Below are positions 38,262-41,376 of a DNA stretch of 64,000 bases, piece by piece. This DNA comes from an uncultured Lachnospiraceae bacterium. GTDB taxonomy: Bacteria; Bacillota; Clostridia; Lachnospirales; Lachnospiraceae. The notes under the pieces were generated by a model. It saw only the letters and a program-made list of their open reading frames with translations. It was not told where the DNA came from and ran no database searches. The stretch lies in the NCBI GenBank assembly GCA_947173495.1, contig CAMWFQ010000018.1, positions 18,233-82,232 of the forward strand, in the 5' to 3' direction. The translations under genes were made by a program, and so were the position numbers. Every line of letters starts with the position of its first letter. Position 1 is the first letter of the stretch.

Positions 38262-40838
38262 TTAACCTTCCATCAGTTCTCTGCGTTTCTTTGCATCGGC
38301 GATTGTCATAAGTACCAGACATCCGCCGGACAAAAGAATCAGCATATACCATACTGCGGAAAGGTCTCCTGTTTCAGGAACATCCGCCAGAGGTACTTCC
38401 TCATCTTCAAGCTCTACCAGACCATCCGGTGAAGCTGACATGGGAACTCCCTCATCGCTTAATTCTGTTAAGCCTCTGACCTGTCCGGCCAAAGGTACTT
38501 CTGTATCATTTAATTCTGTCGTGTTTTCGGCAAGATTAACCACAATCGTTCCATCTGCGCCTGTTGCCGGTGTCGCTGCCAGAGGAACGTCCGTATCGCC
38601 AAGGTCCGCTGTGCCTGCATTGCCGGTGCCAGTACCACCTGCTCCGCCGCCAGTCTCTGTATTGCCGTCTCCGTTTCCGCCAGTCGTCCCTCCGGTGGTT
38701 CCGCCGTTCCCTCCGGGATTCTGTGCATCCGCTTCTCTTCTGGCTTCTTCTGCTGCCGTTTGCGCATCCTCAGCGTCCTTCTGTGCCTTGTCAGCCGCAT
38801 CCCTGGCATCATCATAAGCCTGTTTGGCGTCCTCCGCTTTCTGCCTGGCATCCTCTGCTGCCTTCTCTGCGGCATCCAGTTCCGCTTTGGCCGCTGCGGT
38901 GTTGATGGTGCCATCGGCAAGCTTCAGAGCGGCTAATTTCTGAGCGGCGGCCTGGACAGCAGCCTGAGCGGCGGCCTGGGCTGTTAAGTAATCCGCAAAA
39001 GCCTGATTCATGGCTTCCTGAGCTTTCAGTGCCTGAGCGGCCGCTTCTTGGGCGGCGGCGCTGGCGGCATCGGCTCTCTTTTTAGCTTCCTGAGCAGATG
39101 CCTGATTGTACTTACTGGCTGTCAGATTCTCATTGGCTGTGGTAAGCTCACTATTTTTGGAATCATATGCACTCTCTGCATCTGCTATAGCCTTATTCTG
39201 CGTATTGAGCGCCTTTCTTGCATCCAGCACCTTCTGTGTTGCTTCGTCAAATGCAGAATTGGCCTCTCTCACTGCTGTTTCGGCATTAGTTACTGCTATT
39301 TTAGCAGTTTCAAGCTTATCCTGAAGCTCTGAATGTTCGGTCGTCAACTCACCGAGTTTACACTCTTCATTTTTTATTTGCTCTCTTAATCCGCCTAATT
39401 CGTTAAGTGCAGACTCATTCTTCTTTTTTGCCGTATTGAAATTATCCTCGGCAATCTTTGCCTGCTTTTGTGCAAACTCTAACAACTCCACTCCAAGCGC
39501 TTTGGCATCATTCCCAGTAGCATCCTTATACTTTTCCTCCAAAGCTTTCAAATCAGGATTTCCTGGGTTCGCCGCTTTCACTTGCTCAAGCAATTCTTTT
39601 ATTTTCCCTGGAATACCTTGAACATTATTTGCGTCTGTAACTATTTTATCGGCTTTATCCTTTGCTTCTTGCGCTTCTTTGTATTCTCTCTCAGCCCCTT
39701 CATAATCTGCAATTTGATTTTGCAAACCGGCAATCTTAACCCCCAAGTCTTTGATTTCCGTATCGATTGTAGCTTTTTCACCTTCGATTTTGGTCTGACT
39801 TTCAACTGCTGCTCTATAATTCTCCGCTGCCTGCAATGTCGCCTCTGACTTCCTTGCCGCATCATCTAATGCTCCTTGTAATGCCGTCTCCAAACCCGGA
39901 ATCTTATCCTGCCCATCTTTTAATTCTGCCCCCAGCTTACTCAGCTCACCTGTCAGTCTATTTACCTCACTCTGAGCAGCATCTACTGCAGCATCATAGC
40001 TCGTAAGATCTCCTGCATTCTCCGCAGCCTTTTCCGCCACCTTGGCTGCAAGCGCCGCTTCCGCTGCATAAGCTTCCGCCTCTGCTTTGGTTGTCACTGC
40101 AGCATTATAAGCTGCTTCAGCATTTGTCAGCTTTTCCTGGGCTGCATTAAGCTCTCTCTGAGCTGCATCAAGGGCTGCCTGGGCTGCAATCTTCTGCGCC
40201 CCAATCTGGCTCTCCGCCTCTGCAAGCGCCTGATCATATGCCTCCTGAGCCGCCTGAACCGCTGCAGATGCCGCCTGATAAGCTGCGTCTGCATCTGTCA
40301 TAGCCTGCTCCGCCTTCTCAGCCGCCGTATTGGCTATTTCCGCCTGATCTGCTGCCGCCTGGGCTGCCGCTTCCTTTTCTTCCACGGTAGCATCTGCTGA
40401 TTCGGTGATCTTTTTAGCATCCTCCGCCGCTTTTGCCGCCTGGGCTGCCGCCTCTGACTGTTCTTCCGCTGTCTTGGCGGCTTCCTCAACTGCCTGAGTA
40501 TGTTCGTCAACTATTCCTTTGACTTCCTCTACCTTTTGATCAATCGCAGTTGTGGTATCGCCTACAATCTTCTCAATCTCGGCATTTGCCTCTGTAACAG
40601 CCTTATCTGCGTCATTTGCAGCATTTGTCACTTCCTGCCCCGGAAGATCAGCATTATTCGGCAACTGGTTTACTGCATTGGTACTGGTTTCAGAAGTATT
40701 TTTTGCAGCATCCTCAGCCACCTTCTGTCCGCCTTCTGCGATCGCTGCATCGGTAGGTTCTGTCACCACATCATTCAGCGCATCCTTCACAGCTTCCGCC
40801 GTTTTTTCCTCTACTGGCTTATCTGAGGATTCCTTCAC
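38262..40838 (-). CDS. Ala-rich coiled-coil surface protein with sortase-type C-terminus (out of frame with its signal peptide)
   Basis: 858 residues from a GTG at 40838; the frame is open upstream to the G8 tract, so the true body begins near 40950. It is nearly all Ala/Glu/Lys/Gln-rich helix (long coiled coils), then a Gly/Thr/Asn-rich stretch. A C-terminal set of four related units ending in D-x-E-VP-L/M-A (DTDVPLA, DTEVPLA, DEGVPMS, DEEVPLA) leads to VPETGD, a hydrophobic segment and a KKRRE tail, the sortase pattern. It should be a wall-anchored fibre. It lacks its own signal peptide; that is encoded upstream in another frame (40934-41071). Confidence 0.8.
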   Translation of the reverse strand: MKESSDKPVEEKTAEAVKDALNDVVTEPTDAAIAEGGQKVAEDAAKNTSETSTNAVNQLPNNADLPGQEVTNAANDADKAVTEANAEIEKIVGDTTTAIDQKVEEVKGIVDEHTQAVEEAAKTAEEQSEAAAQAAKAAEDAKKITESADATVEEKEAAAQAAADQAEIANTAAEKAEQAMTDADAAYQAASAAVQAAQEAYDQALAEAESQIGAQKIAAQAALDAAQRELNAAQEKLTNAEAAYNAAVTTKAEAEAYAAEAALAAKVAEKAAENAGDLTSYDAAVDAAQSEVNRLTGELSKLGAELKDGQDKIPGLETALQGALDDAARKSEATLQAAENYRAAVESQTKIEGEKATIDTEIKDLGVKIAGLQNQIADYEGAEREYKEAQEAKDKADKIVTDANNVQGIPGKIKELLEQVKAANPGNPDLKALEEKYKDATGNDAKALGVELLEFAQKQAKIAEDNFNTAKKKNESALNELGGLREQIKNEECKLGELTTEHSELQDKLETAKIAVTNAETAVREANSAFDEATQKVLDARKALNTQNKAIADAESAYDSKNSELTTANENLTASKYNQASAQEAKKRADAASAAAQEAAAQALKAQEAMNQAFADYLTAQAAAQAAVQAAAQKLAALKLADGTINTAAAKAELDAAEKAAEDARQKAEDAKQAYDDARDAADKAQKDAEDAQTAAEEARREADAQNPGGNGGTTGGTTGGNGDGNTETGGGAGGTGTGNAGTADLGDTDVPLAATPATGADGTIVVNLAENTTELNDTEVPLAGQVRGLTELSDEGVPMSASPDGLVELEDEEVPLADVPETGDLSAVWYMLILLSGGCLVLMTIADAKKRRELMEG

Positions 40839-40933
40839 AGCTTCCTCAACAGCCTTCTCGACGGCTTCCTCAACAGCCTGTTTGTTGGGATCGTTCTCGC
40901 CTTCACCCGACAGATTGTTCGTTTTTAATTGTC

Positions 40934-41071
40934 CTATTTCACCCCCCCCGCATTTGCTGTTCCTGCTCCAAGATTCGTCTCGCCTTCAGCCGCGTACACC
41001 GCTACACTCTGACAGCAAAGCGTTACCGCAACAGAAAAAGCAGCCAATTTCTTTAGCTTCTTCAGCTTCAT
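40934..41071 (-). CDS. Signal peptide of the surface protein, ending at a G8 tract
   Basis: The ATG at 41071 follows AGAAAGGAGAG. The product begins MKLKKLKKLAAFSVAVTLCC and ends its leader at AVYAAEGETN. It reaches GTANAGG, passes through eight G residues and stops at TAG (40936-40934). Adding one G to the tract would join it directly to the body of the 38262-40838 gene (..AGGGEIGQLKTNNLSGEGEN). So this is the 5' end of that gene in the out-of-frame state, or the result of a base-count error. Confidence 0.75.
   Translation of the reverse strand: MKLKKLKKLAAFSVAVTLCCQSVAVYAAEGETNLGAGTANAGGVK
40942..40949 (-). repeat. G8 homopolymer switch site
   Basis: Eight consecutive G on the coding strand, about 40 codons into the surface-protein gene, at exactly the point where the signal-peptide frame and body frame must meet. 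Homopolymer G tracts at this position are classic slipped-strand phase-variation sites. Confidence 0.65.
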
Positions 41072-41376
41072 TTTAACTCTCCTTTCTGTAAAATAAGATT
41101 TGACAACTTCCTGCATTTGGAAATTATCTACTTTTCAGTATACGCTCTTTGTTCACATAACACAACGCTTTCTTTCTTCTTTTCAGCATTCGCTGTGACG
41201 ATGCGGCCTTCGGCGATGGGATTTTGCACTCTTGTATCACTTTCTCACGGTCTGTGCAGTTAATGCACAGACCTGGCTGAATAGTCACCATGCCGTTTAT
41301 GTATTGTGCCGATATATTGACATTTTAATTGTTTCATGCCATACTAATATCAGAAAACTTATCAGGAGGCTTTCGT
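41072..41376. other. Intergenic region with hairpin related to the 46141-46287 repeat
   Basis: 305 bases between divergent genes. At 41249-41273 GGTCTGTGCA and TGCACAGACC form a perfect 10-bp stem, preceded by TCTCAC and followed by CTGAATAGTCAC. The same layout with different stem letters occurs at the right side of the 46141-46287 repeat. No gene seen. Confidence 0.4.

What the first reader, a model, noticed from the sequence alone, without database searches (positions are those of the whole stretch)
40934..41071. G8 tract separates signal peptide from an 860-residue surface protein: phase-variation switch
The signal peptide (start 41071) and the wall-anchored coiled-coil body (38262-40950) are in different frames. 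They meet exactly at eight G residues, and one added G would fuse them into a complete exported protein. Homopolymer slippage at this place is a known way to switch surface antigens. In this sequence the protein is off for export. A wrong base count in the assembly is the main alternative.
Basis: partly seen in the sequence, partly recalled or inferred. Interest (0 to 1): 0.8.

Follow-up and report, generated by a model that had tools for sequence, protein, structure and literature searches.

The report
G-run switch on surface-protein export
In a bacterium of a Lachnospiraceae genus, a run of eight Gs lies where a predicted export signal and the predicted surface protein behind it are in different reading frames, and longer G runs coincide with frame breaks in many other genes of the same genus, so the run is likely a random on/off switch for export of that protein.

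Summary
On the minus strand an ATG at 41071 with a ribosome-binding-site-like sequence starts a 45-codon predicted signal peptide, which stops just after a G8 run (40942-40949). A body with 892 open codons behind the run and a sortase-type anchor (NCBIfam LPXTG_double, above cut-off) lies in another, overlapping frame. The genome has four sortase genes and three relatives of this protein with in-frame signal peptides and no G run.

Context favours slippage over an isolated lesion. G runs of 9 or more exceed expectation in this genome. In the genus, genes with G9+ runs change frame there in 21 of 32 cases, against 38 of 376 for G5-G7: close to the two thirds expected if length drifts freely. 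A/T runs show no such excess. Seven secreted-protein genes in four species have the run just behind the signal peptide, all out of frame.

Bifidobacterium breve sortase pilins are a proven precedent. Length variation at this run could not be tested, and a start for the body without signal peptide is not excluded. Most likely it is a slipped-strand phase switch, now off for export: a new member of a known kind within an apparently unreported genus-wide set of poly-G switches.

The parts
41077..41084 (-). Shine-Dalgarno-like AAGGAGAG
   Evidence: sequence
40934..41071 (-). 45-codon upstream frame: predicted signal peptide (KLKKLKK, hydrophobic stretch, YAAEGE) running into a stop just after the G run
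   Evidence: signal peptide judged by eye, no predictor run
40942..40949 (-). G8 run where the two frames overlap
38262..40985 (-). body frame, 907 codons stop to stop, no stop inside; no Pfam domain in the part tested (from GTG 40838)
38283..38465 (-). sortase-type anchor (NF033073 LPXTG_double: VPETGD, membrane stretch, KKRRE tail)
   Evidence: 61.8 bits against cut-off 48

Best explanation
The G8 run lies in the overlap of the predicted signal-peptide frame and the predicted surface-protein frame, and it is likely a slipped-strand phase switch that now keeps the protein from being exported. Shown: the run sits inside the overlap of two open frames, the body has no internal stop and carries a sortase-type anchor, and many other genes of the genus change frame at long G runs. 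Inferred: replication occasionally adds or drops Gs, so a minority of cells would make the joined, exported, wall-anchored protein while the rest stop translation soon after the signal peptide. Also inferred: the benefit would be a mixed population facing antibodies, phages or changing attachment sites. Most of the relatives of this protein are instead preceded by c-di-GMP-I riboswitches, so one adhesin-like family would be controlled in two ways, by signal and by chance.
For: Frames, start, stop and anchor. Four sortase genes in the genome. Three own-genome relatives with in-frame signal peptides (by eye) and no G run. Excess of G8+ runs. Same-pipeline control: frame change at 21 of 32 G9+ genes in the genus against 38 of 376 G5-G7 and 7 of 60 A/T8+. 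Pieces searched apart hit one family at adjoining positions: L031 Acyl_transf_3 6-77 and 70-289; L098 Aminotran_1_2 3-144 and 153-356. Seven signal-peptide or lipobox junctions with a run, all out of frame by eye: window, L033, L042, L086, L087, L096, L107. Same-site runs of different length in homologues: L042 G9 and L086 G10; MBOAT L093 G9 in frame and L114 G11 out of frame. Precedents: PMC9187656 (abstract and sections 15, 21, 22 read); C. jejuni cgtB, where a population holds 8 or 9 Gs, so runs this short do switch (PMC6437147, passages).
Against: No read data, no second isolate and no match to the head in other species, so no variation was seen at this run. Own-genome G8 genes are mostly in one frame (7 of 10) and in the other species all four are. 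All four own-genome G9 genes, and all seven signal-peptide cases, are out of frame; under free drift 0 of 7 in frame has probability 0.06. The GH3 gene split at G9 (L029) has six aligned relatives without the run, so at least one own-genome case may be a fresh lesion rather than a kept switch. The regulator copy L111, out of frame at G10, changes frame a second time about 45 codons further on, so it looks decayed or misassembled. An internal start for the body (GTG 40838) is not excluded.
Confidence: 0.7

Rival explanations
1. The run length is wrong in the assembly and the gene is intact.
For: Accurate counting of G runs is hard, as PMC9187656 itself warns (section 22). The genome is a 52-contig draft. 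The second frame change in L111 and the C6 break in L025 show that some frame breaks in the related assemblies are not at long G runs.
Against: A/T8 runs in the same genome show no convincing break: 26 in one frame; 8 flagged by a loose classifier, which by position and sequence lie at gene starts, ends or between genes; 13 not scored. G5-G7 genes break at the baseline rate. The pattern recurs in several separately assembled species and at homologous sites.
Confidence: 0.11
2. A recent ordinary frameshift has killed the gene; it is a young pseudogene and the G run only made the lesion likely.
For: Out of frame now; GH3 relatives lack the run seen in this genome; no match to the focal head in other species; L111 carries a second frame change, as decay would give.
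Against: 892 codons behind the run are free of stops. Homologous secreted proteins keep a G run behind the signal peptide in two species (L042, L086), and the 2:1 ratio across the genus fits drift of live runs.
Confidence: 0.12
3. RNA polymerase or ribosome slippage at the G run yields a steady small amount of joined protein without any DNA change.
For: G runs can cause transcript slippage (recalled, no call); the L101 and L111 homologues have the same length and the same state at the run in two species.
Against: The spread of lengths and states among homologous runs (MBOAT, L042 and L086) and the roughly 2:1 ratio of out-of-frame to in-frame genes fit DNA length drift better.
Confidence: 0.06

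Closest known systems
Bifidobacterium breve sortase-dependent pilins bbr_0113 and bbr_1889 (PMC9187656; abstract and sections 15, 21, 22 read)
   Same: Sec signal and LPXTG body in two frames separated by a G tract; gut commensal; tract-length mixture shown by deep sequencing
   Different: Different phylum; the pilin heads an operon with its own sortase; the focal protein has a doubled-motif anchor and its neighbours (AAA-ATPase/PDDEXK, phosphoesterase) are not pilus genes; slippage proven there, inferred here; their second frame lacks a Shine-Dalgarno, here GTG 40838 has a GAGG in front
Campylobacter jejuni poly-G contingency loci (PMC4965091, abstract start seen in search listing: 29 loci with G/C tracts of 7 or more in NCTC11168; PMC6437147, passages seen: cgtB with 8 or 9 Gs)
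   Same: Many G runs inside genes; on/off switching of surface-glycan genes by tract length
   Different: Gram-negative; here also lipoprotein and secreted-protein genes with the run right behind the signal peptide
Group A Streptococcus mga polycytidine tract (PMC10330708, title and abstract start seen in search listing)
   Same: Single-base tract in a Gram-positive changes surface protein output
   Different: Acts through a regulator, not through the frame of the surface protein itself
c-di-GMP riboswitch-controlled sortase substrates such as C. difficile CD2831 (PMC6447587, abstract start seen in search listing)
   Same: Most relatives of the focal protein carry c-di-GMP-I riboswitches upstream
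   Different: The focal gene has no such riboswitch

Membership tests
Slipped-strand phase-variable surface gene | Homopolymer inside the coding region at a point where frames change | tested here: met
Slipped-strand phase-variable surface gene | Tract length varies between cells or isolates | not testable with these tools
   no reads and one genome per species; no match to the head in 36 other genus genomes
Slipped-strand phase-variable surface gene | Switch is reversible and changes protein output | not testable with these tools
   needs culture and reads
Slipped-strand phase-variable surface gene | Genome and genus carry other such tracts | tested here: met
Sortase-anchored surface protein | C-terminal sorting signal | tested here: met
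   NF033073 above cut-off
Sortase-anchored surface protein | Sortase encoded in the genome | tested here: met
   four PF04203 genes above cut-off
Sortase-anchored surface protein | In-frame N-terminal signal peptide | tested here: not met
   signal and body in different frames as assembled
c-di-GMP riboswitch-controlled adhesin family | c-di-GMP-I riboswitch upstream | tested here: not met
   none near the focal gene; present at 7 of 8 other members fetched

The most novel reading that the evidence does not exclude
A whole Lachnospiraceae genus, and scattered other genera of the family, run a Campylobacter-style set of poly-G switches. A recurring 'export switch' places the G run directly behind signal peptides and lipoboxes, so that surface proteins and nutrient-binding lipoproteins are exported by only a random subset of cells, while sister surface proteins stay under c-di-GMP riboswitch control.
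Probability: 0.53. Interest if true: 0.75.

Novelty: new member of a known kind. Interest (0 to 1): 0.62.

Why it matters
Phase variation in gut commensals is mostly described through DNA inversions (recalled). If poly-G slippage is a standing feature of Lachnospiraceae, assemblies will keep reporting live surface, glycan-modifying and uptake genes as pseudogenes, and strains counted as clonal will differ at their surfaces. It is directly testable by recounting G runs in deep isolate reads.

Tried and rejected
Protein searches with the whole body and with residues 355-560 gave two weak hits and none; only the 7994 candidates sharing most words were scored, probably swamped by low-complexity words. 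Only the anchor region worked (22 proteins); the best identity is 55%, so none is a second copy of the focal body. A genome-contig scan with the body found no relative. Solved structures: no match. No structure was predicted, because a repetitive body with no usable alignment would give little.

A naive frame-break classifier flagged 190 of 2000 random positions and many A/T runs, so it was dropped and replaced by the left/right-frame test with G5-G7 and A/T runs as its own baseline. That test drops runs with under 40 codons before or 60 behind, within 300 bases of a stretch end, with frames that do not overlap at the run, or with longer open frames on the other strand. It scores L086 as in frame because an upstream open frame is longer; by eye its signal peptide is out of frame, and I left the count as the script gave it. 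In other genera only G9 runs passed: 3 of 10 out of frame, not clearly above the 1 of 25 baseline (P 0.06), so the family-wide claim is weak.

A DNA search for the lipoprotein L033 found only short matches elsewhere in the genus. L028 (ABC ATPase, G8) was left out of my hand count as ambiguous upstream. The argument that the regulators L101 and L111 are both conserved while out of frame was dropped after one search showed a second frame change in L111; confidence in the best reading was lowered from 0.72 to 0.70, in the novel case from 0.55 to 0.53, and that of the pseudogene rival raised from 0.10 to 0.12. Rfam near the focal start gave only chance-level matches. Promoter scan: no convincing site close upstream on the minus strand.

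Eight paper searches for poly-G, homopolymer or slippage switches in Lachnospiraceae, clostridia, Firmicutes or gut commensals listed no such report for Lachnospiraceae. Passages of four listed papers were checked and none describes one (PMC12413058, PMC11868660, PMC13317340, PMC6437147); the other listed papers, PMC9187656 apart, were seen as listings only, and the library is open-access only.

Full report
What is there. On the minus strand, a start codon at 41071 behind AAGGAGAG opens a 45-codon frame that reads by eye as a signal peptide (lysine-rich start, hydrophobic stretch, YAAEGE) and stops at 40934-40936, a few bases after eight Gs at 40942-40949. In another frame a body is open from 40985 to 38262, 892 codons of it behind the G run. 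The body, tested from GTG 40838 on, has no Pfam domain and ends in a doubled-motif LPXTG anchor (NF033073, 61.8 bits against a cut-off of 48). Start-like codons in the body frame begin 37 codons behind the run. The first, GTG 40838, has a GAGG in front, so a start there is possible; it could only give a protein without a signal peptide. As assembled, the signal peptide and the anchored body cannot be made as one protein.

Where it is. The window lies in a 4.58 Mb draft genome of 52 contigs, unnamed. The genome has four sortase genes above cut-off, so an exported copy could be anchored.

Relatives of the protein. Three more genes in this genome share the anchor region, with signal peptides in frame (by eye) and no G run of six or more. 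Seven of the eight non-focal members fetched (three from this genome, five from other species) have one or two c-di-GMP-I riboswitches upstream on the gene's strand; L027 has none. The focal gene has none. Two related proteins carry thioester domains (P0003, P0004), so the family looks adhesive. One member in G002 (L025) changes frame at a C6 run.

Is the G run special? Exact G-run counts in the genome are 410 G6, 39 G7, 13 G8, 5 G9, 1 G10 and 1 G13. A constant drop-off from G6 to G7 would give 3.7 G8 and 0.4 G9+. Of the 20 G8+ runs, by my reading, eight lie inside genes in one frame; six lie inside genes that change frame there (GH3 L029, acyltransferase L031, lipoprotein L033, methyltransferase L035, secreted protein L042, the focal gene; for L035 only the left piece matches a family); one is ambiguous (L028), one is on the C side of a gene (L040) and four are outside genes. 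The genome has 12 Acyl_transf_3 matches, 11 above cut-off, and three of the 12 carry a G8 run (L030, L045, L031). I take that as more than random placement would give, but I did not count the genome's genes.

Controls. The same left/right-frame test was applied to all qualifying runs in the sequences held. In the genus, frame change at G9+ was 21 of 32, against 38 of 376 at G5-G7 (Fisher P 3e-12) and 7 of 60 at A/T8+ (P 2e-7). Other species of the genus alone give 17 of 28 against 14 of 103 (P 1.5e-6). I read the baseline of about 10% as gene borders. Two thirds out of frame is what free drift of run length predicts. In this genome alone the automatic comparison of G8+ with A/T8 is weaker (7 of 14 against 5 of 27, P 0.07). 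By hand it is 6 of 14 against 0 of 28 (P 0.0006): the 28 are 26 scored in frame plus two flagged runs at the very start of a gene; six other flagged runs were read as gene borders by position and sequence, not by homology, and 13 runs were not scored. G8 alone is not a strong class: 7 of 10 in one frame here, 4 of 4 in the other species.

Genus-wide pattern. G9+ runs occur in 30 of 37 genomes of the genus. I examined 69 runs: 20 from this genome and 49 from seven other species, not every site of those seven. Genes interrupted include sugar- and peptide-binding lipoproteins (L033, L096, L107; L087 with a DUF3502 domain), acyltransferases, methyltransferases, an aminotransferase, regulators and an ABC ATPase (L109). 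In seven secreted-protein genes of four species (window, L033, L042; L086, L087; L096; L107) the run lies directly or shortly behind the signal peptide or lipobox, and all seven are out of frame by eye; one search had scored L086 as in frame. Homologous sites: L042 and L086 (38% identity behind the run) share the run behind the signal peptide at G9 and G10; MBOAT genes L093 and L114 have G9 in frame and G11 out of frame at the same motif. The BTAD-like regulators L101 and L111 have G10 in both and are out of frame in both, but L111 changes frame again about 45 codons further on, after which it matches L101 at 86% over 237 residues; I no longer count this pair for the switch. Across the family 124 of 200 genomes have G9+ runs, with a few extreme genomes, but the ten runs that could be scored there do not prove the same behaviour.

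How it most likely works. Slipped-strand mispairing at the G run changes its length in some cells. Where the frames join, the protein would be exported and anchored; elsewhere translation stops within a few codons of the run. This is inferred; neither variation nor protein was seen. The mechanism and even the layout are shown in Bifidobacterium breve pilins, where the signal and the LPXTG body lie in two frames at a G tract and deep sequencing shows mixed lengths (PMC9187656, abstract and sections 15, 21, 22). Runs as short as 8 or 9 Gs are mixed in a C. jejuni population at cgtB (PMC6437147, passages). The B. breve paper also warns that database lengths of G tracts can be wrong, which keeps the assembly-error rival alive.

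Verdict. The locus itself is a new member of a known kind. The wider finding, a poly-G switch set in a Lachnospiraceae genus with repeated placement behind signal peptides, was not found described in eight searches of an open-access library.

Noticed in passing
L019, L020, L021 (own genome), L023-L026 (other species): One or two c-di-GMP-I riboswitches precede seven of eight relatives of the focal surface protein; four have a pair.
   Followed up: partly
L025 (G002:C106), minus-strand position about 1957: A relative of the focal protein with two upstream riboswitches changes frame at a C6 run in its N-terminal part.
   Followed up: partly
G182, G184, G232, G096, G143: A few genomes of the family have far more G9+ matches than the rest (for example 149 in a 1.6 Mb and 112 in a 5.2 Mb genome, overlapping matches counted). 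One stretch each of G182 and G232 was fetched.
   Followed up: partly
L101 and L111: A BTAD-like regulator is out of frame at the same G10 run in two species; in L111 the frame changes again about 45 codons later, and the rest still matches at 86%.
   Followed up: partly
L045 (G000:C49), C run at 2599-2611: A G13/C13 run outside any long frame, about 1 kb behind an acyltransferase gene that itself carries a G8 run.
   Followed up: no
L038 and L039 (G000:C14 and C15): G10 and G8 runs between genes, beside GC-rich sequence that by eye looks like one repeated intergenic element.
   Followed up: no
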